Positions 9,652-57,796 of a DNA stretch of 64,000 nt are shown here, piece by piece. The stretch is from contig JAGFMI010000006.1 of the NCBI GenBank assembly GCA_021030905.1, positions 1,674,001 through 1,738,000 on the forward strand, in the 5' to 3' direction. The stretch comes from Pyrenula massariospora. Taxonomy: Eukaryota; Ascomycota; Eurotiomycetes; Pyrenulales; Pyrenulaceae. The position numbers were made by a program, and so were the translations under genes. Position 1 is the stretch's first letter; each line of letters begins with the position of its first letter. The notes under the pieces are model-generated. The model saw only the letters and a program-made list of their open reading frames with translations, made no database searches and was not told the DNA's origin.

Positions 9652-10437
9652 TCATTCGTTCCATGCTCCTGGAATACTCAGACGAAGCTGCTCCAGCTGA
9701 GCCTCAAGACGTTCTTCTCCCTCTTCTGAAATTCCGTTTGACGCATCGACAGTGGTCAAAGGATTCTCAAAAATTCCACCAGCTAGCCCGTCATCTGATA
9801 AATGAGAGTGAAAGCCAACCAAAAGCACAGGCCGCTTTTCCCACGTCGATTTGTCGCATGGAATGGCAACGCTATCAAGGATCTTGGCAAGGCTATCGAA
9901 GAAATTAGCCCATGAGATGGCGGCGTCGTGGGGATCAAGATCCTTCTGTGTTGATGCTGCTCTGTCTAAGTAGCCCTGAGCACTATACATATCATTAAAG
10001 AGCTTCGCCGCTTCCTTCTCCAGAACTGATTCGTCAGGAACGAGCTGGATAAGATGAGCGGGTGCAAAGTATTCTGGGCTAGGGTTTCCGTCATTGTCTT
10101 CAAGAATTGATGCATAAGCCTCAAGATAATGCCAAGCATAACGGAGTAAGGCCATGTAGCTGGACATTTAACTGCAATGCTTCGAAATGTGCTTCAAAGC
10201 CGATTCGTCAGTGTTTTGCGCGGGACTTGACACTAGCAATTTGCTCATAGACCACTGTAGCTTGAGCAACTTGATTTCGGCGTACCTTATGAAAAATTCT
10301 GCTTTCTCCCAGATTTTATTGTAGTCGTCGGCAGCTGAAGCGTTCAACTCATATTGAGTTTCGTCCCTATCGTGAGGTTCTACCTTGTCAACTTCGGTAA
10401 CAGTGTCAAGCTTTATAATATCAAACGCAACATCCAT
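9652..10437 (-). pseudogene. Diverged member of the local two-block helical family, with in-frame stop
   Basis: From ATG 10437 (MDVAFDIIKLD) one frame runs to 9652, interrupted by a TAA at 10170-10168 and followed at once by ATG. Reading through would give about 260 residues. The N-terminal block (DYNKIWEKAEFFIRYAEIKL) and the segment just after the stop (SSYMALLRYAWHYLEAYASI) line up with IWDRLRGSCKELKSLLEKA and SQYISFLECSLDTTERSIG of the 55.4-kb gene. The C-terminal block (FFDSLAKILDSVAIPCDKST, then W) resembles the ends of the 43- and 57-kb members, with an extra acidic tail after it. A 13-nt GT..AG stretch around the stop is far too short for an intron. Either the gene is inactivated or an upstream exon was missed. 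Membership is inferred from pattern, not high identity. Confidence 0.5.
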
Positions 10438-14108: not shown

Positions 14109-15449
14109 ATGAATACTTCTGGCTCTGAATCAGCTCAGCTTCTGACCAGTCTCTGCATCGGTATGATTGTTATTGCGACAGTGGCCGTTGCTCTTCGCTT
14201 CTGGTCCCGGGTTGTTACATACAAACCACGCTCACGAAAACCACGTTTCTGGTGGGATGATTGGCTCTGCCTTCTGGCTCTAGTAAGTAGCACCGCAAGC
14301 ATATACCGTGTGGAGAATCCGTTCTTACTGGATAAAACTTTCATAAGCCTTTCTCTTTGACTCAATGTGGCCTTTCGCTTTACTGGGCTAAAATTGGGTT
14401 TGGCAAGCATACACAGACCGTGGTACCTAGCGACGTAGAACTGAGTCTCAGGATGCTCTATGCAGGGTTAATAATTTACGATGTCGCTATATCCTTACCG
14501 TAACTATCAGTTCTTTTCTTCTACTCTCGGCTCTTTGCAGGTTCTAATAGTGGGAAGTTCAAGATCATGCTTTGGACTACCGCTTTTCTTGTAATTGCGT
14601 GGCTTCTGTTTGCCATTCTGTCGAACACCTGGCAGTGCAGACCTATTTCTAAGACTTGGAATCTACTAGAACCCGGTCATTGTATTAACAACTACGGATG
14701 GTGGTTGATTGCCACAATCTTAAGCGTCATTATTGATGTGATGATAATGATCTTACCCCTTGGCAAGCTGAAGACGTTGAAAATGAAGCCGCTCAAGAAG
14801 ATCGTAGTGGTAGGAATACTAATGTGTGGATACAGGTAAGATCAGTTAATATGCAGTGATCTATGGGTACAACTAATTGAATCAAGCGTGATTGTTATTT
14901 CAATTGGACGCCTTGTATCAAATGTCCGAGTGGGGCCTACTTTGACAAAAGATATCGATTGTAAGTTCTTAAAAATACTTCTTCCTCTATCTTAGACTGC
15001 TTGGAAAGATTATGGGGGTTTCTAAAGGCTACCGGGGGAATTTACGAATGAAACCCCACAAAGGTCTACATATACTAAGAAAACAAGACAAAGTTGTGCG
15101 GATCATCACTTGGAGTACAGCTGAGGCACCGATCTCGATTCTCGGCGTTTGTTTGCCAAACATCTTCGCGTTGGTCAAATACGGTCTGGCACGACGACCT
15201 TACAATCTCCTGAGTTCGCTTACAAGCGCGTTTGAAACGGTAGGGGGGAGCTCCAGCAAGTCCTACGTACGTAGCGGGGATGACGAGGAAAGAATGTATG
15301 AAGTGAATATGGTTGGCAGCTCAAAAACCTTTTGCATGGGTGGTAAGAAATCGCTAGCTGGAGGAGCGGACCAGTCAAGCAACAACTTTGAATTGGCTCC
15401 TCCGCAAGCAGTACATATACGGCATGGGGCTGATGTGATGCATACTTGA
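14109..15449 (+). pseudogene. Rhodopsin-fold integral membrane protein, inactivated by a nonsense codon
   Basis: A fungal seven-helix rhodopsin-domain protein (PTH11/SAT4-like group). Exon 1 (14109-14282) gives MNTSGSESAQLLTSLCIGMI and ends WDDWLCLLAL. Intron 14283-14347 has donor gtaagt and acceptor cataag. Exon 2 (14348-14835) gives SLYWAKIGFGKHTQTVVPSD, then YDVAISLP, a TAA stop at 14511-14513, and continues LSVLFFYSRLFAGSNSGKFK in the same frame. An intron follows to 14886, and exon 3 (14887-14960) gives SVIVISIGRLVSNVRVG. The last exon contains ITWSTAEAPISILGVCLPNI and a polar tail ending at 15449; its 5' edge is uncertain (aag acceptor near 15092 fits best). The stop falls where relatives have a charged residue before the leucine-rich helix; no plausible intron removes it. 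All other splice sites are intact, so inactivation looks recent, or the base is an error. Confidence 0.8.
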
Positions 15450-16786: not shown

Positions 16787-18046
16787 TCACACCTGCTCGG
16801 TCGGTCTTGCGCCCTCAAAATCGTTTATTTGACTGTCAACCATCAAGCCGCGCTCATAAGCCACGAGAAAATCATTCGTGACCAGTATTCCGTCTCCTTT
16901 TGGCTTCAGAGTAGTTTCTTCATCTTTCGATCGCTTACTAATCTTTTGTACCCCCATCTTAAAGTAACGGCTCTCGGTTTCGCGTTTGCTGCTTTGGTGA
17001 GGGATATTCCGCTTTGGGGTTATTATCAAGCTTCGCACTGCGCAGAGAGGTGTTTCACTGAGGAGAAAAGATAAGACCGGACGCATCTGAAGTAAGCATG
17101 CAGACACGAGGTAAACTGTTGCTTCAATCATAGTGTACACCACCACAGGTACTCCATGCCAAGAGTGATCATAGCTGGGTTGAAAAAGCACTATCTGACG
17201 TACAATGCAGACAATTATGCCCCTAGAAAAAGTCAAAACCACCATGGGACTTTGAGAGAGAAGTTTCTTACATGCTACCTAAGAAAGGAGTAGTAAGAAT
17301 TCCGGCCTTGACCCGCCACGGGACTTGCACCTTCCAAATTGTCGGTATCGGCAATATTCCCAAGCACAAATCACCTAGTATCATTGGGATAGGACCGAAT
17401 CGAATCAAAAACATAGGCCTTACGCATGTCCCATCAACACTAGGGTTCCAAAGCTTCTTCACTGGTCGGCATTGAAAGATTGCTATTGGGATCTCAATGA
17501 CAGTGCAAATGATGATGAAGAGACCCACAAGCTTTGCGGCGAGTCGATCCTTTTTTCCGGTGAAGATGGAATGATAGACGAAAAGTACGGCCAATCTTGA
17601 GCATGTGGCGGATGCTAGGAAAAGAACAGGCCCGGCTATGAAAGCGGTCTTTTGATAAACGGCGTAGATCTCTGGGTAGATGATTAAGGACTCCATGTGT
17701 CGGCCAGAACGACCAAGCTTCACTGATACTGCATTTTTTCTCAGACCCTTCCACACATTATGGACGATTGTAAAAGCATACCTATGTAATTTGCGTTAAG
17801 TCCCCAGGAGAGCATCAGTCCTGCGAGTACAAGACAGTCGGCGGCTCGTACTCCACTTCGTTGAATCCATCTCGCCCAGAACCGTAGAGCAACAAACGTT
17901 ATATCCAAGACGATACAAGCAATGGCGGTCCTCAGTATCATGAAGCCACGGTCCTCGTCAAGGCGGGCCTGTCCATATCTGTCGAGCCACCATTGAGGTA
18001 TGGCCTCGTCATTGGAAAGTCGCGGGATATGTCTGTCACTTGACAT
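16787..18046 (-). CDS. Rhodopsin-fold integral membrane protein (fungal rhodopsin/PTH11-like)
   Basis: Three exons give 385 residues: 18046-17782, 17728-17272 and 17222-16787. Introns are 53 nt (donor gtatgc, acceptor atgcag) and 49 nt (donor gtaaga, acceptor tttctag), and the phases agree. After a polar N-terminus (MSSDRHIPRLSNDEAIPQWW) come helix 1 (RTAIACIVLDITFVALRFWA), helix 2 (ADCLVLAGLMLSWGLNANYI), the loop SGRHMESL, then helices including FIAGPVLFLASATCSRLAVL, VGLFIIICTVIEIPIAIFQC, PIPMILGDLCLGILPIPTIW, GIIVCIVRQIVLF and YTMIEATVYLVSACLLQMRP. The cytoplasmic tail is basic and polar. The conserved pair linking the third loop and fourth helix (CRPVKKLWNP) fits the family. Many such proteins are putative receptors; the ligand is unknown. 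It is the intact cousin of the pseudogene at 14.1 kb but too different to be a recent copy. Confidence 0.85.
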
Positions 18047-24357: not shown

Positions 24358-24503
24358 TTATCCCCTATGCTGGTAAAAATGTCGATGGGTTTTTTGGGCC
24401 AATGACGGCATTGCCATCCCCCGGCGCCGATCACAACAGGGGAAATAGTAATGCCGTCATCGGCCCAAAAAAACCATCGACATTCTTACCAGCGTAGGGG
24501 ATA
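24358..24503. repeat. Foldback element with about 60-bp inverted arms
   Basis: Two arms of roughly 60 bp (24358-24417 and 24445-24503) are near-perfect reverse complements around a spacer of about 27 bp. Left arm begins ttatcccctatgctgg; reading the other strand, the right arm begins ttatcccctacgctgg. The few mismatches I see are mostly C/T or A/G. The element could be a miniature inverted-repeat transposable element or the remnant of one, or a hairpin-forming transcript. Target-site duplications are not clear. Confidence 0.8.
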
Positions 24504-24504
24504 A

Positions 24505-28040: not shown

Positions 28041-28837
28041 TTGACTCAAGCCATCAACCTCCACGAAGGGTTCGATGAATCAGACAAGCCAAGCTCTTCT
28101 CTCGAGAGCCTAATGGAACTGATGTATCTGGATGAAGTGCTTCCTCGTGATCAGGAACAGCGGCATGAGGAGAAGAAGAAATTCGAAGCACTTTTGTCCG
28201 CAAATCGATGCCATGAGCAGCCTCTCCCAGTCTCTCAGAAAGATTTTGACTTGAAGCACTAGGATAAACTCCGCCATCTCTGCAAAGAGCTCGAGAGCCA
28301 AGTCTTCAAAGCGGCAGAGGGCCTCCATGACGTACGTTGCTCGCTCTATGATCTACTCCGCAGCGTAGACGGTTTTAAAAACCCTTTAATCGAAGGGTTT
28401 GACAATATCATGGGGACTTGCGGCTTCTTCGCACATTGAACATTCTACATATGGATCTGTGCCGATATCAAAATATCTTGCGTCGCACCACGTAGGATAA
28501 TGGGAGCAAGATTAAAGACTCTTAGTCTAGAATCTTTGGACATTCTCGACTGAAGACTATCAACCGCCACCTCGACTCTCTTCAGCTGGACGTGAAGAGT
28601 ATGAAAAAAGATATTGCGCAAGCTACAGTTCTTATCTCGAAGATCAGGTCTATGGTCGATGAGCTGCGGACCAAAAAGCGAGACGTCAATGGCTTGTTGG
28701 GTGCCACGAGTGCTTTCCTTGCCGGTATTAATATTGAATCCGATGCCAAAGCCGTGGTCGGCTTTTTTGTTCGAAAGATACTCACTTTAGCGGAGCAATG
28801 GGAGACAGCCAAAGGGATGAAGGCCAAGAAAGACTGA
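28041..28837 (+). pseudogene. Pseudogene of the local two-block helical family
   Basis: The reading begins at TTG 28041 (context TTGACTCAAGCC), at the TATA spacing where the other members have ATG, so the start codon seems lost. The frame runs through SSSLESLMELMYLDEVL, meets TAG at 28260-28262 and continues in frame with DKLRHLCKELESQVFKAAEG and SLYDLLRSVDGFKNPLIEGF, the N-terminal block. A TGA follows GFFAH at about 28438. The C-terminal block is in another frame, from about 28540: LKTINRHLDSLQLDVKSM and KKDIAQATVLISKIRSMVDE, ending AVVGFFVRKILTLAEQW. It therefore has a lost start, at least two stops and a frameshift. TAG for CAG and TGA for CGA would be C-to-T changes, as in RIP, though that is inference. 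Confidence 0.65.
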
Positions 28838-40458: not shown

Positions 40459-41121
40459 ATGTCTCCCCTCCTCAAAGCACACCAACAGCCCCACCCGACG
40501 AACGTCGCGGCTACCCCAACATCCCTTTGGGATCCCTGCCGCCAATCCTGTAACGACCTCTCATCCATCCTCTCTACCGCCTCAACGCAAGTGACCTCGC
40601 TCCTCCACTCAGTGCAAGACCTCCTATCCCCGAGTTTAGGCTTCTCCAACTCCTTTCGCGCCCAATTCACCGACACTTATTGTACCTCCGGCATCCAACA
40701 ATATAGGGCTCTACTCGAAGAGCAACTCGACGCCTGCAAGTGGATCCTGGCTGCCCGCATGGCAGAGTACCTAGGGACAACCGACATCGAGAATAGTGAT
40801 GCTGGGGCCGAGCTCAACAAACAGAGAACACAGCTTGAGTGGACGATTGAGGAGCTCAAGAGCAATGCGACGCCATTAATTGTGGACCTTGAGCAGCTTC
40901 AGATGTGGGCGGCGGAGGTTGAAGCTTTTCTTGAAGGGGCGTGTACGGAAGATGCGTGGCAGAAATGTTCGTATGGGGGAATGCGGGCATTTCTTGAAGA
41001 AGGGAATATTCGGATAGATTCCAGATCACTGCTTCGAAGTCTGATATGGAAGATAGGGAATGTGGCGGCGAAGTATGAGAAGATTGTTCGGGATGCGCGT
41101 GGGGTAGTGGGAGACTCCTAG
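40459..41121 (+). CDS. Two-block helical family protein, array member 1
   Basis: One exon of 220 residues from ATG 40459 (MSPLLKAHQQPHPTNVAATP). A polar N-terminus precedes block 1 (CRQSCNDLSSILSTASTQ, LLHSVQDLLSPSLGFSNSF), which ends in SGIQQYRALLEEQLDACKW. Block 2 starts LNKQRTQLEWTIEELKSNAT, continues IVDLEQLQMWAAEVEAFLEG and ends SLLRSLIWKIGNVAAKYEKI. It lacks signal peptide and membrane helices; heptad-like hydrophobic spacing suggests a helical bundle or coiled coil. I do not recognise the family. Members at 41.8 and 43.1 kb lie on the same strand at 636- and 757-bp spacings. Function unknown; promoter with TATA box 93 bp upstream. Confidence 0.75.
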   Translation: MSPLLKAHQQPHPTNVAATPTSLWDPCRQSCNDLSSILSTASTQVTSLLHSVQDLLSPSLGFSNSFRAQFTDTYCTSGIQQYRALLEEQLDACKWILAARMAEYLGTTDIENSDAGAELNKQRTQLEWTIEELKSNATPLIVDLEQLQMWAAEVEAFLEGACTEDAWQKCSYGGMRAFLEEGNIRIDSRSLLRSLIWKIGNVAAKYEKIVRDARGVVGDS

Positions 41122-41757
41122 AAAGGCGTGGCAAGCTGGAGAGCAAGCAGCCTTTTGGGAGAATGGCAAGTAAAAAATCCACTAGGTCTTGAAGAAGCAC
41201 ATAATATAAGACTTATAGTCAAGCTATACCTTTCCCAGTGCAAAAATATAATGTTTTGATTGATACAATCTCACTTTTGTTGTTTATCAAGTTAAACTCG
41301 ACACAAATATTCCTCCAACAAATTCTTGAGAATCTATAACTGCATGATTATCCCAACAAGCTCTAAGTTATAATATTGCATTCTAGACTTCTCTAAGTCG
41401 CCATTATTTATTAATATAGCCATGGATATGGAATTAAGACTTCCAAATGAACTTTAGTCACTGACAGCTTGCAACTTGAAGCTATTGACAGAATTAGAAC
41501 AATGTCTTTGTCTCAGGCTTTTCTGCACAAGATTGGTCGGTGTAAAGGCCGTACAAAGAACATAGTTTACCGTAACTCACCTTAGTCACAAACCAGTCTC
41601 TCGTTACTCAAAGAAAAGTCAAGCTACCTATAAATACTAGATCACTTACCAGTAGAGACAATCCTCGTCCGCTACAGCAATCATCATTTCTTGTCAAAAA
41701 CACAAACTAAACTCAGTCAGACGCTTACAGATCCCCTGCTCAACAACAAAAGTGAAC
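41122..41757. other. Intergenic spacer in the tandem array
   Basis: AT-rich; contains the TATA box of the second array member. Confidence 0.45.
41629..41636 (+). promoter_or_regulatory. TATA box of the 41.8-kb family gene
   Basis: tataaata, 129 bp before ATG 41758. Confidence 0.55.
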
Positions 41758-42375
41758 ATGTTCTCACCTATTCGGAAACCAACCAGTACCCCGCACAATG
41801 GGCCAGGTCGGGTCTGTCTTCAACGCTGCGAAGAACTCGACATCTTGCTCTCAGAAACAAACAACAAGATCCTGGCCCTCAGCCGATCAGTCACAGTCAT
41901 GGTAACAGAAAGTGGCCTAAGTGACCCGTTAGATCGCCACTCTAACATGAACCACAGGATGGACATGGCCCGTTACTGCGACCTGCTTCGGGCAAACTTT
42001 GACTTATGCCGCGTGCGAATCGATGCTCTTGACGAGTCCATGGAAGATTCCATCGGCGTCCATAGCGAATTTCCTAAGTTCACCTGGTTCGTCGAGCGGC
42101 TCACAGAGTCTACGAAGGAGCTCGCTACTGATGTCGACAGTCTGAAGAACTACTGCGACCTTACGAAAACTTTGCTTGAAGATCTCAAAAAGGAGGACCC
42201 ACTCTTCTCTTTCTTTACGGAGGAGATGAATGCTTCTTTCCCAGGCGGTGAGTCTCGAGGCAATGCTTCTGTCTTGGTCCAGGGGCTCAAGAGAAAGATC
42301 CAGCAGGTGGACTCTCGATGGGCTGAGAGGTATCAGCAGGGCGAAGTTTTCGAAAAGTTGATAAGAAATATCTGA
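41758..42375 (+). CDS. Two-block helical family protein, array member 2
   Basis: One exon of 205 residues from ATG 41758 (MFSPIRKPTSTPHNGPGRVC); an upstream in-frame GTG is unlikely to start it. Block 1 is CLQRCEELDILLSETNNKIL and SRSVTVMVTESGLSD, ending MDMARYCDLLRANFDLCRVR. Block 2 is FVERLTESTKELATDVDSLK and NYCDLTKTLLEDLKKED, and ends VLVQGLKRKIQQVDSRW. The Y-x-x-L-L core and the terminal helix plus Trp match the other members, while most residues differ. Soluble, likely cytosolic; no domain recognised. Confidence 0.72.
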   Translation: MFSPIRKPTSTPHNGPGRVCLQRCEELDILLSETNNKILALSRSVTVMVTESGLSDPLDRHSNMNHRMDMARYCDLLRANFDLCRVRIDALDESMEDSIGVHSEFPKFTWFVERLTESTKELATDVDSLKNYCDLTKTLLEDLKKEDPLFSFFTEEMNASFPGGESRGNASVLVQGLKRKIQQVDSRWAERYQQGEVFEKLIRNI

Positions 42376-43132
42376 CGTTGTGGGGCATCTATCGATGATT
42401 TGATGAATGGAGACGGCATGAAACCGGCATGATTGAATTTATCAAGGTAGTAAGCGGTAAATATCCAAATTGAGAGATAGAAAGACGAAAAAAGTTATTT
42501 CTTACTGTATTCTATAACGATCCTGAAACTGAGTGTCTTCGAATAAGATGTTTTAGCTAAAGGAGCCACAGTGGCTCAGGGGCTCAGAGTTCCTGTCGGT
42601 AGATTTCAGCATGCACTTCCAGGTAGCTAAGTTATAATTTCTCGGCTTTAGCAAACTATAGTGTAGCCGTTCAAAGTTGTTCAAGTCAATACAGACTACG
42701 AGGAGGGCTTAACATGAAGGTAAACGATGTCATTCTCTATGTTACCACCTAACCCCTCTTCCCTAGGGCCCACTCAGCGGAATGCCACCACTTTAGACCA
42801 TTACTACTACGTCGAACTAGTGAAAGCGATAATTCTGCCGCCAAATGTATGTCAATTTTATGGCAAAGGAGCACGGCTTAGAAAATTTAAAGTCCGCGAG
42901 TCAGCCTCTCGTTTTTATTGATAGAGCTGGAACAATACCGACGTCTTAGGCTTCTCTTTGCTAGTAGGATGATGATCTAACAGAAGTCTCTTCTGAAAAT
43001 CCACATAGCTATCTATATTTACGTTTAGCGTTAGTCTTTGTTCAAAGAGAACAATATGTACATAAGTACTGGATTTAGTACGGGCAATTTTCTCCTTCAT
43101 TCTCACATTGTCATCATCAATCTAGTCGCACC
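42376..43132. other. Intergenic spacer in the tandem array
   Basis: No supported frame apart from promoter elements of the third member. Confidence 0.45.
43014..43021 (+). promoter_or_regulatory. TATA-like element of the 43.1-kb family gene
   Basis: tatattta, 119 bp before ATG 43133. Confidence 0.4.
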
Positions 43133-43897
43133 ATGTCCTCACCTTGGAAGCCACCAACGATAACTCGTCATGATGAACCGCCCGCCGACACAATTCAGCT
43201 CAACCAGCCTTTCCCAAACGAACTCCACCAACAACATCAACCCTCGAGTTTCGGCACGACACAGGCTTCGTCGTATATCTTAGATCTCTGTCAACGCACC
43301 CACCAACAAACCGAACCCGTCCTACGCAAGATCCACGCTAGCTTCGACGACCTCTTCGACATGGCGGACAGATTACTGTGCAAGCACGCCTTCAGCAGCG
43401 AGCTCCTAACCCGCTTCAGGGTCTACGAGCGAGACTCGGGCATCCTCAACTACCAGCGCATCCTCCACGACGACTTCAAGAAATGCGCCCAGACGCTCGC
43501 TGCTATTGCGAAGAAACAGCAAGAGGGCGTGGAGAACAGCGATCCCAAGATACCCGAAAATAACCGTGTACCCCGGAGCTTCCTACAAGGTACGCCAGCC
43601 GCGGTCCAGAAAGACTTGTCGCTGACCGAGCTATCCCAGATTCTCACAGAGATCGAGCAGCGGAAGAACGAGCTAACACTCATGCTCGAGGATATCATCA
43701 AACTCAAGAGGAGTGCCTTGAACGCGAATCTATTGGTCGCTGGCAAACCACCGGTGTTTCCGCTAGGACAGGAGGCTCATGCGCGTATCAAGGGTAAAGA
43801 ATACCGGAGGGCCGTCACGTGGCTTCTTATGGAGGATTTGGACTGTGTGGCGGCTCCGTGGAAGGAGAGGGAGCGGAGGGCTGGGGGATGCGCATGA
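43133..43897 (+). CDS. Two-block helical family protein, array member 3
   Basis: One exon of 254 residues; ATG 43133 has a good context (caccATGtcc). A Pro/Gln-rich N-terminus (residues 1-45) precedes block 1 (YILDLCQRTHQQTEPVLRKI, SFDDLFDMADRLLCKHAFSS), which ends DSGILNYQRILHDDFKKCAQ. Block 2 is SLTELSQILTEIEQRKNELT and LMLEDIIKLKRSALNANLLV, and the end is RAVTWLLMEDLDCVAAPWKE. The terminal Pro-Trp is shared with the 55- and 57-kb members. It has a GC-biased third position compared with its neighbours, supporting real coding. Function unknown. Confidence 0.75.
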   Translation: MSSPWKPPTITRHDEPPADTIQLNQPFPNELHQQHQPSSFGTTQASSYILDLCQRTHQQTEPVLRKIHASFDDLFDMADRLLCKHAFSSELLTRFRVYERDSGILNYQRILHDDFKKCAQTLAAIAKKQQEGVENSDPKIPENNRVPRSFLQGTPAAVQKDLSLTELSQILTEIEQRKNELTLMLEDIIKLKRSALNANLLVAGKPPVFPLGQEAHARIKGKEYRRAVTWLLMEDLDCVAAPWKERERRAGGCA

Positions 43898-46306: not shown

Positions 46307-47133
46307 TTAGAGCATAAAAGCCATGCCAGCCATAATGACAGCGCCGCCAACCGATCCTGCGACATGAGATGCAGCACCCGTAAACATCGCAGGCGGTGTG
46401 CGGGTGGCGGTACCTGTCCCGTTGCCCGGTTTCCCACCGGAACCGGTGCCTGTAGGCCCTGGAGGGACCGGAGTCGTGATATTTGATGAGCCGCCGGTGG
46501 ATGCATTGCATTGGGCTGGAGAAAAGGTTAGAAAATGCTATTAATCGAGAGAAGTCCTTTTTACTAAGGTCTATACTCACCTCGTTGTGCAGAGCAGAAT
46601 GCTTGGTTCGCGTTTGGAGCGGTCCGGCACGCATTTTCTTGAGCTTGACAATACGAGATCGGAATTGTGGTGTTTGAGGACCCGCCAGTCGATGCATCAC
46701 ATTGAGCTAAAAAGAAAGAGTCAGAATGTTCCTGATCGAGAATCAAGCATCGTTACTTACCTCTTTGTGCAGAGCAGAATGCTTGATTTGCGCCCGGAGC
46801 GGTCCGGCACGCATTCTCTTGAGCTTGACACACGGAGACCGGTGCCGTGGGACCAGGGGTAGGCGAGGTGGTTGTTGTTGTGGTAGTGCCGGGGACACAG
46901 CCGGCACGTTGAGCGGAGCAGAATGCCTGGTTGGCGTTGGGAGCGGTGCGGCAGGCGCTCTCTTGTGCGGTGCAGTAAGCGTCACAACTGGCGCGTTGAG
47001 CGGAACAGAAAGCCTGGTTGGCGCCAGGAGCTGTTCGGCATGTGTTTTCCTGGGTAACACAGGCGGAGGGAGGAGCTTGGGCGATGGTAGTGGTAGCGGT
47101 GAAGAGGATGGAGGCGAGGACTGTGTACTTCAT
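46307..47133 (-). CDS. GPI-anchored cell-wall protein with four Cys repeats
   Basis: Three exons give 235 residues: 47133-46761, 46706-46581 and 46515-46307, with introns of 54 and 65 nt (donors gtaagt and gtgagt), both in phase 1. Residues 1-20 are a signal peptide (MKYTVLASILFTATTTIAQA). The mature protein carries four copies of a repeat of type C-x-x-Q-E-x-x-CRTAPxANQAFCSAQR, two in exon 1 separated from the third by a Thr/Pro linker, and one in exon 2. Exons 2 and 3 both begin with A-Q-C-x-A-S-T-G-G-S-S-N. The C-terminus (GAASHVAGSVGGAVIMAGMA and a hydrophobic end) fits a GPI-anchor signal. The cysteine spacing is not CFEM-like. Likely a wall-bound structural or adhesive protein; the function is inferred only from layout. 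Confidence 0.85.
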
Positions 47134-49037
47134 GATTGGTAATATGTATTCTGTACAATTGCGATCGATCGAACGGAAGATTCAAGCAAGCTGCAACTGG
47201 GAGACTTTGACAGGGTCAGATGAATCTGCAAGATGAATTCAGGTGTCTTGAGTGACATGAGATCCATTATATATGGGAAACCAATTGAGAGTACTCTTTC
47301 CCTCCAACCTCTCCATACTTCCAAACTTGAGCCTTCCCTCTGAAAATCTCGTCCAAAGACGCCACAACCGCACAATACGAAGTATCGTCGGCGGCTTTGC
47401 TTTATCTACCTACTTTGTGGCGTTTGTGGAACATAAGCTTTATGACCAGCTAGCCAACCTCTCTCTTTCGCACTCCTGCAAATATCCCTATTGAGACGTG
47501 CGCACTTCGTAGCGCCGACCTATGGTTGAGCTTCTGGCCCCGTTTTGAAAACACTACCAGCCATTTTGATCTGTGTGCTAGGGCGACAGCTAGGATCCCC
47601 CACAAATCAAATGTACCGGCGCAAAGTTTAGACAAAGCGAGGCTTGGCGGGGAGGCTGGTTGAAATGAGGGCTAGCTGAGGTGGAAGTGCAGGCGCTTGT
47701 TCTGGTTGAGGCTGGAGCTTTGATGTCCCTATGGGAGATTGTCGGCGTTTTTAGCGGGGTGGTTGGGGTGGAAACCTTAATGGAAACCTTAATCCAGGGG
47801 GCGGGGGTGGAGCGCCGACACCAAACTTGAGAAGCTTTGACAAGTCTGATCAACCGACCGCAGCCACGTACTGCAGCCATTATAATCTGGAATTGCATCT
47901 CGTTAATAGGCTCTCTTAATGATGGCTTATCTATTGCTATTGCATGGTCATTCATATTGCCGGCTAAGTTGGTCGAATGGGTCGTTGAGTGCCGCAGCCC
48001 CCTTCCGTCCTCCGACTTACATCAGAACACGGTCAAATCGAACAACAGCGGATAACACCAGTCTGGACTCTCCCCGAACGTGAATATGGCGTCGTCACTG
48101 AAGACTCTCTATCATCATCAGTAGTGTGCCCAATTATGATGCGCTTGTTTGAACCAGCCCGCTGGCGATGAGGCATTGATATAGGGTCGATATTTCCACT
48201 GTTTGTAACTTGGTACGGTGCTACAGCAAAGGTCGAGAGCAATAATACTACTCAGAGGGGATAGCCAGATGTATTAGATAATTTATCTTTCTATAGTATA
48301 CTAACATGCCCCGTAAGATAAATCCTTTGATTGATAGATTTGATATAATGTAACCTTACAGGTCGGACGGCGCAGCTAAAGCGGGCTACTGGACGGCATC
48401 TGCTGGTAGAACCACAAGACCGACTTGACAGAGCTTCCCTACTTCAATATACGACACTTATGGCAGAAAATTGTGGATAGGTAAAGGCTATCGCTCCCCT
48501 CCACAGTTGGGGTACTGCCGTTGATACAGAAGATGGCATGGCAGAATTCGGCAAAGTAGGTCGCAGTACAGAGTACGAGCAAGTGTGCCGGCTAAATCAA
48601 TTTTGGGTCGCAGTGCGGCTCCGCGTCTAGCCTTTGCTCCCAGCGTAATCCAAATGGCCGAGCCCATATCCTTTCGTCTCATGTCGAGAGGATTAGTCCT
48701 TCTTCTATGCACGTCATTGGTCGTGCCTGGTTAGAAGCAGGCCCCTTGCTATTGTATGTCTTACCCCGTTAATATTGTGAGTGGGGCAGACTTCTCTATC
48801 TTGTTCTAGCGGTGCTTAGGGGGGTTTTGACAATGTTAACTATACAGCAGCGGAGATGGTTATGTGCTTGGAGAGATGTGATCATCAAAGGCTCAGGATC
48901 TATGACCCGGCTACACAAAGTATCCCGGCCTACCCTTCCCTTTACCTCTCCAGCATCTCCCTTATCGGTACTGCTTGGGCCGTGACATTACAAACGCCTC
49001 GTGACATCATTCTTGTGGACACTTCGCCGTCACTGCT
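47134..49037. other. No supported gene
   Basis: A 1.9-kb gap with short frames only; the right end is the 3' flank of the CorA-like gene. Confidence 0.45.
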
Positions 49038-52000
49038 CTATCCAGACTCTCCGTTTTCGAGGTCGCTCCCTCCTCCAGACAGTCCCTCTTCCGAAGTTGT
49101 GTTCTTATTCCGCCTTAAGCGTTGGCGCAAAGTGCCCATCTTCGTTCGTGCCTGGAGTAAATCGCCAATCCCAGGTCGAATGATATTGAAGCTCTGGCGT
49201 TTACCGTCGACGGAGTGCTCCCGCTTTTTCCGGGCTTTACCCCGATCATCGAAAATGAGGATGCAGTAGAACACAAGCGCCGTGACGAACAGTGCAACAG
49301 CCGCCGTGATAACCATCGTGTTAACAACGTGCCGCTGTGGAACTTGTCCCATACCAAACAGACTGCTTGCGAGGCCTACAGGCAAGAAGAATGCGGTCAA
49401 ATATGTGAAGCGCTTGATATTCTGTGCCTCAAATCGGGAAATGGCGATGCGAATGGATTCCTGCGCACTAGTCACAAGGCCGATACAGGATTCGATCTCG
49501 GCCTGCTGGATTCTCAGGTCTCGGATGCATCGTTCTTGCATAGCCATGCGCCTTCTGATCGACTGTCGGTATTTCTGCTCATCGTTGCGAGTCCACCTTG
49601 GCCGGCCCTGGCCCCGTGTACTCTCGCGATTTTCCCAGCGATCGACCAATTCTAGGACAGATGCGAAATTGCTCTTCAGCATGATTAAGATTTGTAATAT
49701 CTCTTGTAAGCTGTGGAGGCCTCGATGCTCGAAAGGTGTATTGTCAAAAAGATCGTTTTGTTCAACATTAGCCTTCGTAGGTGCTCCTTTCTTAATCGCT
49801 TCAAAGATATCGTCGGCACATCCGCGAACTTTTGATAGTATGCGTTCAAATAGGATCAGCTCGAGAACCTTCCTTTGTTGCCAATGTTCGTGTTTTTTGA
49901 CCAGTACGTCTACAAGGTTCTCGCTCTGGCAGCCTGCAAAGTTTTCGATGATGTGACATGTCCAAGATCGATCAAAGAAATCTCCAACGAACCGGAATCC
50001 TATCGCGGCCTCCGAGATGTGCGAAGGTTTGGATCCTTCACTCAGATCGGAACATCGTATAGACTTCACAGATCGCACAGGAGGGAAGCTTAGCTCCTGG
50101 GCTTCACCTTCACCATGAACCAACTGATAAAAGCTGCAGTGCAGCTCTGTTTCCCATAGATTGGAAAATACAACCGTATCATCGACAATAAACTCCCTAG
50201 ACTTTGCATGTCGATCAAAAAAGTGAGAAATATGCTCTCTCCCCCCATCAGGGGATGCTAAGTAGCAGACAGCTGCAACTATCTTGTCTCCTGGTCCGAG
50301 ATATATTAAACGTTTCTTCGCCTTCTTTGCAATGCGCTTTTCTCTGAGTCCCCTCCAAAAATCGTAATATTGACTGCCCTTGTAATAAGAGGTATCAGGA
50401 CCGTCAAATCCTCTTTTGCGCTGCTTCTTACCCTTCCCTACATCAATCGTCGTGAGTAACCTAGGTACTACCAAGTTCCAAGGCGTGGCTTCAGCGGAAA
50501 CTTCATTTGTAAGTTCTGCGATACACTTTCCTACATATGTATCACGATCTATCTGGTCCAATATTGAGGCTGGGATTTTGAGATGCGGCGGCTCGAAATC
50601 GAGAAAATTGGGATAATCGTAAAGCCATTCCTCAGGAACGTCAACAATGTTACTTAAATCGACAAATTTGCCGTAGGAACATGTCGTTTAAGAGGGACGA
50701 TACGAAGGGCAGGGCCGTCCGGCTGACTGTTTCGACTTATATCGAGGACAGCTGCCGCTTCTCTCTTTTCAAGTTTGTCAAAAGATGAGTAAATCTGATC
50801 ATCTGTACTCATAAGAGGGGTTGACCGGGCGATACTCGTTCGCCTCATTGGCTGGTGCTTGAGTTGTAAATCTCGACCAGGGCTACGAGAAACCCCTGTT
50901 TTGTGTTCGCTCTCTCTGTTTTCCTTTCCACCTTCAGATGCCCTAGTTCGTCCCTCAGAGTCGATGCGTCCTCTTTCATTATCTTGATGGTGTCCGCTAA
51001 GTTCCACAAAGAGAAGCACGGAAGGTATCTCAAAACCGACGCCAAAAAAGAAGTCTCGATACAGGTCACGATCAAAAAGTGCCGGTTCTTTTGATGTCTC
51101 ATCTATCTGTCCTGAAAATAGTCCATTACCAGATGAAGAATTCAACAGAATTTGCCTAGCATGGGAGATCATGTTTGGGGCACTGTAGTTTGGATCGAGT
51201 TGATGGCCCCTAATTCCCATCAGAATAGCTAGAGCATAACGTAGAGGATTGTCCCATTGCATTTCATCGTTCCCTCCGTCATGGAGGGCTTGCGATTCCA
51301 CGAGGCGTAGCCACAACTCAGATATTGGCTGAGAATCATCCTCGAAAAACCCCTCATTCATCCCATAATACAAGACCGTGTCCCGAGAGTGGAACAGGAA
51401 ACGTGTCTCTCGAGCAGACCTAGTGACGCTAAGCATTCGCTTCTTGTAAATGTCGTTTTTGAGGGTGAACCTCTTGAGAATCTGCTTTCTCAATTCTTTA
51501 GTGGTGAATTCGAGCCTTGGGCCATCTCTGTCTCCTCTTCTTTTGCCATTAGGAATGCAATCTCTAAGCTCCAAAAGAGATATCATGTTGGCATTGAGAG
51601 ATGAGGAATTGTTTCCTTCGATCCTTCCTATCAATTGATCAATGGAATGCAAAGCCCTCCAAATCCAGACATGGTCACTTAGGCGATACGTCCTAATGTC
51701 TGTACCATCTGGAAGATGCTGCCATGTTGTAGCCAGGTGGTTCTTGGTTTCGGTGAGGACCCTTATCCAAGATTTGACCAATCCAGACAGCGGTACCGAT
51801 ACCAGGTCAAAATCGTCCTGGTCCGTGAATACTTTCAAGTATTCCATTACCTTCAGAATATGCATGGGCATGTTTGTCGGGTTGTCAGGCGGTATCTCTG
51901 GAAAACCATCGAAAACTGGTACGATAACCCTGCCATCCACCCAAATGTTTGAGGCACAAGCTTGAGCATCAGCATTAGCTTGCATGTTATGAAGCTTAGC

Positions 52001-54040: not shown

Positions 54041-54170
54041 CTATCGAGGCTGGGTAACAGAAATCGTGGCCCCCCGTCGCGCCCTACCGGTTAATAATCG
54101 GCCTGAAGAGCCTGAAGAGGGGCCACGACAGCTGTCACCCAGCCTCGTCTACACTGCAAGCGGCCCCGCA
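54025..54170. repeat. Inverted repeat, probable transposon-derived foldback element
   Basis: Arms of at least 30 bp (54045-54074 and about 54118-54147) are reverse complements: the left begins cgaggctgggtaacag and the right, read on the other strand, begins cgaggctgggtgacag. Both then share gtggcccc inwards. Outside them a weaker match (gcggcc and gcggggccgc) extends the arms to about 45 bp. The centre of about 45 bp has no coding content. Likely a miniature inverted-repeat element or a solo terminal repeat pair. Confidence 0.7.
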
Positions 54171-55245
54171 GATTCCCTATTCCTTTAGCACGGCCAAATA
54201 GCGATACCACCTATTGAAGCGCCTCCCCAGACGTCCTGATTGATCACTACACCGGTCGAATGATTTCATGAAATGTTTGCAGGCTCCGATATCCTGTCAA
54301 CCAATCATTAAAAAGCATCGACGCCACGACTAGCTCGATTGAAAGCCCTAAGACGAAACAGTAACCTTTGAACCACTTCCAGTGTTAATCCTTGCGCATC
54401 GACGCAAATAACCCATTTGAAGAGAGCGAACCTAGACTTTTCGATTAATTTCTAGGTAAGTGCGAGGATGGTGCATTAATGCCGGTGGCCCCTAGCAGTG
54501 AAAGTTCGGATCCTAGGAGTAAGTGCTCCACAGGAGCGGATATTTGGACCCCAGGCTTTAGAGCGTATCTAATTCTATGCGTGAATAGCTTTTGAAATTT
54601 CCAAGTTCATGCCACCTCCTCTACTTAAACTAAGAGGTATACTTGGTCAAAAATTGCGAGGCATATGGATAGTACGTCGGAGGGCGAAAGAAAGGGCGCC
54701 TGAGCAGTGTGTGAACGACGCGAGGAGCGGTTAGCGAGTAGCAGTGGCACTGCGCCTCAGTAGCAGCAGTGAGCCTTGATGGCTGAGACGGGAAGTTCGA
54801 AAATTGAATGTTGCAAAACATCATATCATGCTCCATATCGACAACCTTCTCCATGCCATCGGCTTAAATGGTTGTTATGATAGCGAACAAGAGACAATGA
54901 GGATACTAACGACGAATACATATCATGTCATTCTGACCTCGTGCTATCAAGCGTATTGTAACCAAAATACCTAGCTTAGCAAGCTTAAAGGTAGATATTA
55001 CGTGAAGGGTGAGACATGGCGCAGCCGAGACAACAAAACTAATTCGGACGGTGATGCGCAAATTGAATAAGCCAGAGGGAACAAAGTGTGTTCTATCACC
55101 GTTTCGTGACCTCCAGTAATGATGGAACAATGACCCTCTCAACAGTAATTAGTACAAAACTTTTCTATCAGGCAACCCGCTCAGCTTACCGTACTTAAGC
55201 TTAGCATCAATAATGAGACTCTTTGTCTGTAGATATTATGGAGGA
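54171..55245. other. No supported gene
   Basis: Short frames only; leads into the TATA box of the 55.4-kb gene. Confidence 0.4.
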
Positions 55246-55374: not shown

Positions 55375-56046
55375 ATGGCATGGCGTTGTCTAGCTCGCCT
55401 CTCAGATCCGCCAGCGGAAATGGAACGAGAACCAAGTCCCGCCGAAGAGTTGCCGATGCCAGTGATATGGGACCGCCTTCGCGGCTCGTGCAAGGAGCTC
55501 AAGTCACTTCTCGAAAAAGCCGAGAGCGACACCAACAACCTCTGCCAACAAGTGAACGACATGCTCAGAGGAAATGGGGTTAAAGCGGACGGGTTGAATT
55601 CTTTCAATGAAAGTTTCAGAAACACAGGCTTATCGCAATACATCAGTTTCCTTGAGTGCAGTCTTGACACAACCGAACGCAGCATAGGCGTTCTGGACAT
55701 GGAAGATGACGACGAGCTCGAGATAATAAATCCCAAAGAATGCGCCACTAAAGAACTTTCCGAGAGGCTGTCTTGGGTTGAGAAGCTCAAACAGGCAGCA
55801 TACGAGCTTGTTGCAGACACCGCGCAGCTCATGAATCATGTGACTGTCGCCAGAGAGTTGATTCATGCTCGTATGAGCGAGCAGCCCGAGCCTATGGAGA
55901 GGTTCTACGCTGGACCTAATAGCATTATTCATGACGTTATGTCTGATCAGGGTGACAGACACGGCGACGTGTGTGGCTTGATTCGCTGCCTTCTTTTCAA
56001 AATGGAGCTGACCACCGCGCCATGGAGTTGGAAGAGTAGGATGTAA
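55375..56046 (+). CDS. Two-block helical family protein, 55-kb member
   Basis: One exon of 223 residues from ATG 55375 (MAWRCLARLSDPPAEMERE), chosen over 55213 because a TATA box lies between them. Block 1 is IWDRLRGSCKELKSLLEKAE and NLCQQVNDMLRGNGVKAD, ending TGLSQYISFLECSLDTTERS. A short acidic linker (DMEDDDELEI) follows. Block 2 is SERLSWVEKLKQAAYELVAD and TAQLMNHVTVARELIHARMS; the end is VCGLIRCLLFKMELTTAPW. No membrane segment or signal peptide. It is the closest model for the family consensus and is followed after about 900 bp by the interrupted copy. Confidence 0.75.
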   Translation: MAWRCLARLSDPPAEMEREPSPAEELPMPVIWDRLRGSCKELKSLLEKAESDTNNLCQQVNDMLRGNGVKADGLNSFNESFRNTGLSQYISFLECSLDTTERSIGVLDMEDDDELEIINPKECATKELSERLSWVEKLKQAAYELVADTAQLMNHVTVARELIHARMSEQPEPMERFYAGPNSIIHDVMSDQGDRHGDVCGLIRCLLFKMELTTAPWSWKSRM

Positions 56047-56947: not shown

Positions 56948-57796
56948 ATGTTGTCGCTCTTCAAAGGATCAACAGCAGGCCGTGAAGACCAGCCGTCCAG
57001 CGAGCCAGATGAGATTAACGAAGTGCCCGCTGAGTCAAATGATCAAGGTGGTGTCATCGAGCCAAATGAGCAAGATGATGTCATCGTAGACATCAATAAG
57101 CCAAAGCCTCGAGTTTTGGACCCTGATCAGACGTGTTCAACGCTTGGAGACCTCTGCATCCGTTGTCGTGATGAAGTTCACAGCCTCATATTCACAGCAG
57201 AAAAGGATCTTTTACAATACTCCGGTCGTGTGGAAGCAATGCTATCCTGTAGCACAGAAGTAATAACATTCCAAGATGGCGACGCATTCAACCTTCAAGA
57301 AATCTTCGGTGAGGATCTCACCATTTCCGGTCTTCACAAATACTAGGACGTCCTAGAATACCAGCTGCGCAAGTTCACAGACAGATTCAACAATGACGCA
57401 GATAAAGGGCAAGAAGATGTTGGAGATCACCCGTCCAACCATGCCGACTCATCGCAGCAGGAGAACGTCAAAACTCAGAACTCCACTGACGCTAGAATAA
57501 CCAAGCGCTCTAAGCTCGTCTCGCAACTTGATGATCTCAAGGAAGATATAACCCACCTGATCGCGGATTTGGGCCATCTCAAACGTCATTTGGCGTCGAC
57601 AGAGGCGTTGATCAAAGACCTCGACATGACCAAGCCTCGTTTTAGAACGCTCTCTGGAAAATACCAAATAGATTTTCTCGACAATCTTTATCCTCTAGCG
57701 GATGCAGTTTGCCTGATCCGTGGCCATCTTCGCAAGTCCGAGCAGATAGGGTCACCATGGGAGGAAAAATATAAGGCGAACAAAGATTCCGATTAG
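56948..57796 (+). pseudogene. Two-block helical family member interrupted by one in-frame TAG
   Basis: From ATG 56948 (MLSLFKGSTAGREDQPSSEP) the frame runs through a polar acidic N-terminus with an imperfect repeat (VIEPNEQDDVIVDINK), then block 1 (TLGDLCIRCRDEVHSLIFTA), to the TAG at 57344-57346 directly after SGLHKY. The same frame continues without further stops to 57796: DVLEYQLRKFTDRFNNDADK, then block 2 (SQLDDLKEDITHLIADLGHL, LKRHLASTEALIKDLDM) and the end AVCLIRGHLRKSEQIGSPWE. The read-through length is 282 residues, longer than its relatives because of a linker rich in Asp, Ser and Gln. TAG sits inside the conserved Y-x-x-L-L segment, so a truncated product would lack block 2. A CAG-to-TAG change would explain it. 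Confidence 0.65.

What the first reader, a model, noticed from the sequence alone, without database searches (positions are those of the whole stretch)
40459..43897. Tandem array of a fast-diverging helical protein family with no recognised domain
Three intact intronless genes on the same strand encode proteins with two shared helical blocks: block 1 ending in a motif like S/T-G-x-x-x-Y-x-x-L/I-L (SGIQQYRALL, MDMARYCDLL, DSGILNYQRIL) and block 2 ending in leucine-rich helices with a final Trp or Tyr. Outside these positions almost nothing is conserved. Five further copies or relics lie elsewhere in the window (9.7, 28.0, 39.4, 55.4 and 56.9 kb). The combination of tandem duplication, rapid divergence and pseudogenes is typical of genes in conflict or self/non-self recognition, but that role is inference.
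Basis: partly seen in the sequence, partly recalled or inferred. Interest (0 to 1): 0.85.

Follow-up and report, generated by a model that had tools for sequence, protein, structure and literature searches.

The report
Uncatalogued fungal helical-bundle gene family
Three neighbouring fungal genes, with relatives and broken copies nearby and on one other contig, belong to one real but uncatalogued family of small proteins predicted to fold as bundles of helices; what they do is unknown, and the idea that they serve self/non-self recognition is only a guess.

Summary
Genes at 40459-41121, 41758-42375 and 43133-43897 are intact, intronless and homologous. Leave-one-out profiles recover each (E 1.5e-25, 3.5e-14, 2.5e-4). 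Two AlphaFold models (pLDDT 83 and 71) share the order of their main helices. There is no Pfam hit above cut-off and no PDB fold match at E<=1e-3 for either model.

Of the five further copies claimed, 55.4 kb is intact, 57 kb has one in-frame stop, and 28 kb is a relic. The 9.7-kb copy belongs to a diverged subfamily, tied in only by profile comparison. The 39.4-kb relic is not supported.

Single-protein searches of the whole genome add one locus, on contig C10, with one member of each subfamily. 'Fast-diverging' is not shown: synonymous sites are saturated and the tree unresolved, so the copies may simply be old. Conservation falls on the hydrophobic core, so I read them as cytosolic, non-enzymatic interaction modules. 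A recognition role is possible but untested. HET genes near both loci mean little: the genome has at least 150. No other fungal genome could be searched.

The parts
40459..41121 (+). g1: intact family-A gene, 220 aa, intronless; modelled as a helical bundle (main helices 25-55, 64-75, 78-104, 114-162, 184-218)
41758..42375 (+). g2: intact family-A gene, 205 aa
43133..43897 (+). g3: intact family-A gene, 254 aa, most diverged; same order of main helices as g1 in its model
55375..56046 (+). g4: intact family-A gene, 223 aa from the ATG that fits the alignment (an upstream in-frame ATG at 55213 would add 54 residues)
56948..57796 (+). g5: family-A copy, open except for one in-frame TAG at 57344-57346; holds an in-frame 27-bp tandem duplication at 57032-57086
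28203..28837 (+). g6: family-A relic, two pieces in different frames with in-frame stops
9652..10437 (-). g9: family-B (diverged subfamily) copy with one in-frame stop at 10168-10170; closest relative g8 on contig C10

Best explanation
This is a real, small family of paralogous fungal proteins that has gained and lost copies in a roughly 48-kb cluster and at one other contig. Each intact protein modelled has a disordered N-terminal tail followed by an up-and-down bundle of four long helices plus shorter ones. The hydrophobic seam of each helix is kept and the surface is free to change. With no hydrophobic N-terminus, no membrane segment and only 7 invariant positions among five intact members, the protein is most likely a cytosolic, non-enzymatic interaction module, each copy binding its own partner through its variable surface. 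SHOWN: homology of the copies, intact frames, one predicted order of main helices in two members, core-weighted conservation, broken copies. INFERRED: cytosolic location, lack of enzyme activity, binding through the surface, any role.
For: Leave-one-out profiles find each of 5 intact members (E 2.5e-4 to 1.5e-25 for a set of 5299 frames; the best of 2000 shuffles of each has E 0.55 or worse). Models of g1 (pLDDT 83.4, pTM 0.76) and g3 (71.4, 0.64) share the order long, short (12 residues), long, long, short (7), long. Hydrophobic positions repeat at 100-110 degrees in 5 of 5 helices; the commonest residue has frequency 0.55-0.84 on the seam against 0.38-0.47 elsewhere (partly circular, since an aligner favours hydrophobic matches). 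Invariant among five members: P3, L38, L48, Y82, L86, D143, L147 of g1. The highest 19-residue hydropathy is at most 1.01 in g1-g4, g7 and g8. Five frames stay open although synonymous sites are saturated (pS 0.60-0.80; pN 0.48-0.54 in 9 of 10 pairs), which argues for function. RIP-type dinucleotide indices of the copies do not lie in the RIP direction (thresholds recalled).
Against: Both structure models were made with alignments that hold the same window sequences, so they are not independent, and only the order of helices was compared. Saturation makes the pN/pS contrast weak. Expression is unknown. The longer start of g4 (55213) would add a hydrophobic N-terminus. One invariant Asp and one invariant Tyr leave a small door open for a catalytic or ligand site. 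Hydropathy was used, no dedicated signal-peptide or membrane predictor.
Confidence: 0.55

Rival explanations
1. The family works in fungal non-self recognition or intragenomic conflict: variable surfaces of the bundles discriminate partners, and copies are gained and lost under changing selection.
For: Seven linked copies in the window, of which 2 carry a single stop and 1 is a relic; diversity lies mostly outside the core; a second, diverged subfamily lies at both family-A loci. Two-gene clusters are described for fungal death pathways (PMC10197012, passages only).
Against: Divergence may simply be old. No receptor or known death domain in 38 Pfam scans of other window frames. HET genes near both loci are expected in a genome with at least 150. 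No population data.
Confidence: 0.22
2. Ordinary, old paralogues with a housekeeping or developmental role, not in conflict; tandem linkage is left over from ancient duplication.
For: Saturated synonymous sites, end branches of about 1-2 changes per column, an unresolved tree, and the copy on contig C10 lying no further out than the tandem ones.
Against: Two single-stop copies and one relic show turnover; proteins with housekeeping roles are usually better conserved and would more often have a Pfam family (general knowledge).
Confidence: 0.25
3. The proteins are membrane-attacking HeLo-like cell-death executioners.
For: Helical and about 200-250 aa, as HeLo proteins are (size and fold recalled).
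Against: The HET-S HeLo domain attacks the membrane with an N-terminal transmembrane helix (PMC10197012, passages); here the N-terminus is hydrophilic (highest 12-residue hydropathy near the start at most 0.55 in g1-g4 and g7) and of low confidence in the models. No HeLo entry is named among the 50 PDB matches listed for either model, and no HeLo family in Pfam at E<=10.
Confidence: 0.04
4. Chance open frames or relics of a transposable element.
For: Short, no domain.
Against: Five intact homologous frames, 0.05 such frames expected per window, a confident fold for g1, two loci found in the genome by seven single-protein searches, and no repeat shared by the copies in a blastn of the window against itself at E<=1e-3.
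Confidence: 0.02

Closest known systems
HeLo / HeLo-like (HET-S) death proteins of fungi
   Same: Helical, similar size (recalled), in fungi
   Different: No hydrophobic N-terminal helix, no NLR partner seen among the frames scanned, no Pfam match and none among the 50 PDB fold matches listed
Generic antiparallel four-helix bundles (designed Maquette-3, PDB 6z0c; IncA soluble domain, 6e7e)
   Same: Best Foldseek matches of the models: general up-and-down bundle
   Different: Best E about 0.09-0.11 and TM-scores below 0.5 in the listed rows; no sign of common descent
Fungal lineage-specific tandem gene families (birth-and-death families; recalled as a kind)
   Same: Linked copies, loss of copies, no catalogued domain
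   Different: Distribution in other fungi could not be tested here

Membership tests
HeLo domain (HET-S type) | N-terminal transmembrane helix that attacks the membrane | tested here: not met
   Hydropathy near the start at most 0.55 (12-residue windows) in g1-g4 and g7; low-confidence N-terminus in the models of g1 and g3; feature as described in PMC10197012 passages
HeLo domain (HET-S type) | Match to a HeLo profile or fold | tested here: not met
   No such Pfam family at E<=10 for g1-g4, g7, g8, the 9.7-kb piece and both pieces of g5; none named among the 50 PDB matches listed for each of two models
HeLo domain (HET-S type) | NLR/STAND partner gene next door | tested here: inconclusive
   None in 38 Pfam scans of other window frames, some overlapping (18); the window has 139 frames of 90 aa or more, so many short frames and split exons were not scanned
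Allorecognition (het) gene | Balanced polymorphism or diversifying selection between strains | not testable with these tools
   One genome only
Allorecognition (het) gene | Incompatibility reaction between strains that differ at the locus | not testable with these tools
   Needs crosses or transformants
Secreted small effector | N-terminal signal peptide | tested here: not met
   Hydropathy only: no hydrophobic N-terminus in g1-g3, g7, g8 or in g4 from its aligned start; the longer g4 start would have one; no dedicated predictor was run
Family A of this report (membership of g8 and the 9.7-kb copy, subfamily B) | Profile similarity above shuffled and unrelated controls | tested here: met
   hhalign score 36.7 over 130 colinear columns; 0 of 150 column shuffles (best 21.0) and 0 of 127 single-sequence control frames (best 19.1) reach it; as single sequences g8 scores 26.1 and g9 25.4. 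Against: an earlier, poorer B alignment gave p 0.015 only, the 9.7-kb piece without its first part scores 18.7, within noise, and direct phmmer/blastp E-values are 0.07 or worse

The most novel reading that the evidence does not exclude
A two-subfamily (A and B) system of helical-bundle proteins is a new class of fungal non-self recognition or conflict genes, unrelated to HET, NLR, HeLo or gasdermin proteins, in which bundles with a constrained core and free surfaces recognise each other or a changing partner; A and B work as a pair, which is why both loci found in the genome hold both.
Probability: 0.1. Interest if true: 0.75.

Novelty: new member of a known kind. Interest (0 to 1): 0.4.

Why it matters
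Filamentous fungi hold many uncatalogued, lineage-restricted gene families (general knowledge). This one has a confident predicted helix architecture, several intact copies, copies lost by a single stop and a second linked subfamily, which makes it a tractable case for asking what such families do. If it proved to be a recognition system it would add a kind not built on HET, NLR, HeLo or gasdermin parts.

Tried and rejected
39.4-kb relic: no match to profile A at E<=10 in a stop-tolerant scan of the window and flanks, E 11 to profile B; rejected. HET context: HET genes lie at 22.1-23.9 kb of the window and near the C10 locus, but all 150 candidates scored, of 362 found, pass the cut-off, so such neighbours are expected. 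RIP as cause of divergence: the indices of the copies (TA/AT 0.46-0.71; (CA+TG)/(AC+GT) 1.08-1.53) do not point to RIP (thresholds recalled). CorA hit of g3 (E 0.082, below cut-off): chance. TIGR02436 'four helix bundle protein' to g4 (E 0.15, 12.3 bits against a cut-off of 24): below cut-off. C22 match of g5b (E 0.63): a long coiled-coil-like frame, chance. Stops at a shared position in the broken copies: looked so at first for g5 and g6, but in g6 the motif resumes in another frame, so the positions differ. Bacterial, archaeal and viral collections: no relative of g1. Tree of copies: no supported fork. More members in the fetched flanks (C30 80 kb before and 90 kb after the window, C10 76-94 kb): hhalign of profile A against 546 frames gave nothing beyond known copies, g8 (26.1) and noise near 19. 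Papers: seven searches listed 14 papers in all; none of the titles describes such a family; only PMC10197012 was opened, and only passages were seen.

Full report
What is there. The window is part of a 2.24-Mb contig (C30) of a 37.8-Mb, 33-contig genome, by gene content a filamentous fungus (Zn-cluster, HET, P450 and fungal rhodopsin genes); the species is not known to me. The three reported genes are open from ATG to stop at 40459-41121 (g1, 220 aa), 41758-42375 (g2, 205 aa) and 43133-43897 (g3, 254 aa) on the + strand. A first-order Markov version of the window gives 0.05 ATG frames of 200 aa or more per 64 kb (1 in 20 simulated windows).

Are they a family? Yes. Direct pairs: g1-g4 (the 55.4-kb gene) E 7e-14, g1-g7 (a gene on contig C10) 1e-13, g1-g2 2e-7, g1-g3 2e-5; g2-g3 gives only 0.32. 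A profile built without a member still finds it in 5 of 5 cases (g1 1.5e-25, g2 3.5e-14, g3 2.5e-4, g4 8.2e-20, g7 1.8e-20, scaled to 5299 frames), above all 2000 shuffles of each. g3 is the weakest member.

The other copies. 57 kb (g5, 56948-57796) is open but for one in-frame TAG. 28 kb (g6) is a relic in two frames (E 1.2e-4 and 7.9e-4 in a stop-tolerant scan). 9.7 kb (g9, minus strand, one in-frame stop) belongs to a diverged subfamily, B. 39.4 kb is not supported. So the window holds four intact A genes, one A copy with a single stop, one A relic and one B copy with a single stop.

The rest of the genome. Single-protein searches of the whole genome with six family-A queries and one family-B query find one further locus: contig C10, with an intact A gene (g7, C10:84177-84908) and, 0.8 kb away and convergent, an intact B gene (g8, C10:85704-86504). 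These searches work frame by frame, score only the best candidates and did not find the 28-kb relic, and the tool does not take a profile, so diverged members may be missed. g8 was noticed because it lies beside g7, so that neighbourhood is not an independent finding; but its only other match in the genome lies in the window cluster. By my arithmetic about 0.5% of the genome lies within 35 kb of an A gene, a distance chosen after seeing the result, so chance is a poor explanation. Common descent explains the linkage without any pairing: profile A against profile B scores 36.7 over 130 colinear columns, against at most 21.0 in 150 column shuffles and 19.1 in 127 unrelated frames taken as single sequences. 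As single sequences g8 scores 26.1 and g9, with X at its stop, 25.4. Against this, an earlier comparison with a poorer B alignment gave only p 0.015, the 9.7-kb piece without its first part scores 18.7, inside the noise, and direct phmmer and blastp comparisons of A with g8 or g9 give E 0.07 or worse. The A-B link is good but rests on profiles.

Fold. AlphaFold2 on g1, with eight window pieces as alignment, gives pLDDT 83.4 and pTM 0.76: helices 25-55, 64-75, 78-104, 114-162, short ones at 166-169 and 173-179, and 184-218. g3, the most diverged member, with six pieces as alignment, gives pLDDT 71.4 and pTM 0.64: a short helix 18-23 in a low-confidence stretch, then 42-85, 89-100, 103-134, 156-202, 213-219, 224-251, the same order of main helices. 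The two jobs share sequences, so this is support, not proof, and the comparison is of helix order only, not a superposition. Foldseek finds nothing at E<=1e-3 in the PDB for either model (best 0.11 and 0.088) or among viral models for g1 (best 0.10); the top PDB matches are mostly designed or generic helical bundles. A second structural aligner was not available. Sequence searches find no Pfam family above its cut-off for g1-g4, g7, g8, the 9.7-kb piece or the pieces of g5, no NCBIfam family above cut-off for six members (the one weak match, to g4, is a 'four helix bundle protein' model at 12.3 bits against a cut-off of 24), and no PDB profile match better than E 0.19 for A and 2.1 for B.

How it evolves. 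In 10 pairs of intact members pS is 0.60-0.80 and pN 0.48-0.54, except 0.33 in the one pair with only 16 aligned codons: silent sites are saturated, so 'fast' cannot be told from 'old'. The maximum-likelihood trees have no supported fork and end branches of about 1-2 changes per column, and the C10 copy lies no further out than the tandem ones. The three genes are neighbours but not demonstrably each other's nearest kin. Within helices, hydrophobic positions repeat at 100-110 degrees in all five, and the positions of the seam are more conserved (0.55-0.84) than the rest (0.38-0.47). Turnover is real: three of seven window copies are broken. RIP does not look like the cause.

How it most likely works. 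The proteins have no hydrophobic N-terminus and no membrane segment by hydropathy, and only seven invariant positions, of which Y82 and D143 are the only ones with functional groups. I read them as cytosolic, non-enzymatic binding modules whose core is held and whose surface differs from copy to copy. The target is unknown. Self/non-self recognition is one way to use such a module; here it rests on analogy alone. HET genes lie near both loci, but the genome holds at least 150, and no NLR turned up in 38 Pfam scans of other window frames, some of them overlapping, out of 139 frames of 90 aa or more. HeLo membership fails on the membrane helix and on profile and fold search.

Verdict. A genuine, apparently uncatalogued fungal family with a confident helix architecture and a second linked subfamily. 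The conflict reading is open, not shown. Relatives in other fungi could not be searched with the collections on hand.

Noticed in passing
window 24358-24504: A 147-bp imperfect palindrome (82% self-complementary) with matches at 9 other places in the genome, 2 of them only 36 bp long: a MITE-like hairpin repeat.
   Followed up: partly
window 54045-54147: A second 103-bp palindrome (72%), not similar to the first at E<=1e-3, perhaps an older hairpin element.
   Followed up: no
window 46567-47181, minus strand: Frames that encode a hydrophobic N-terminus followed by repeats of a Cys-containing unit, continuing in a second frame: looks like a secreted repeat protein, split by introns or broken.
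   Followed up: partly
window 49041-50687, minus strand: 549-codon frame whose end matches the CorA membrane segment: 26.9 bits for the whole frame, just under the Pfam cut-off of 27; the 214-aa ATG frame at its end scores 29.9.
   Followed up: no
window 14504-14836 (+) and 16790-17795 (-): Two fungal rhodopsin-type genes or fragments on opposite strands.
   Followed up: no
window 57032-57086: In-frame 27-bp tandem duplication inside the broken family copy g5.
   Followed up: partly
whole genome G000: At least 150 HET-domain frames (362 candidates in the first look, 150 scored) in 37.8 Mb: a HET-rich fungus.
   Followed up: partly
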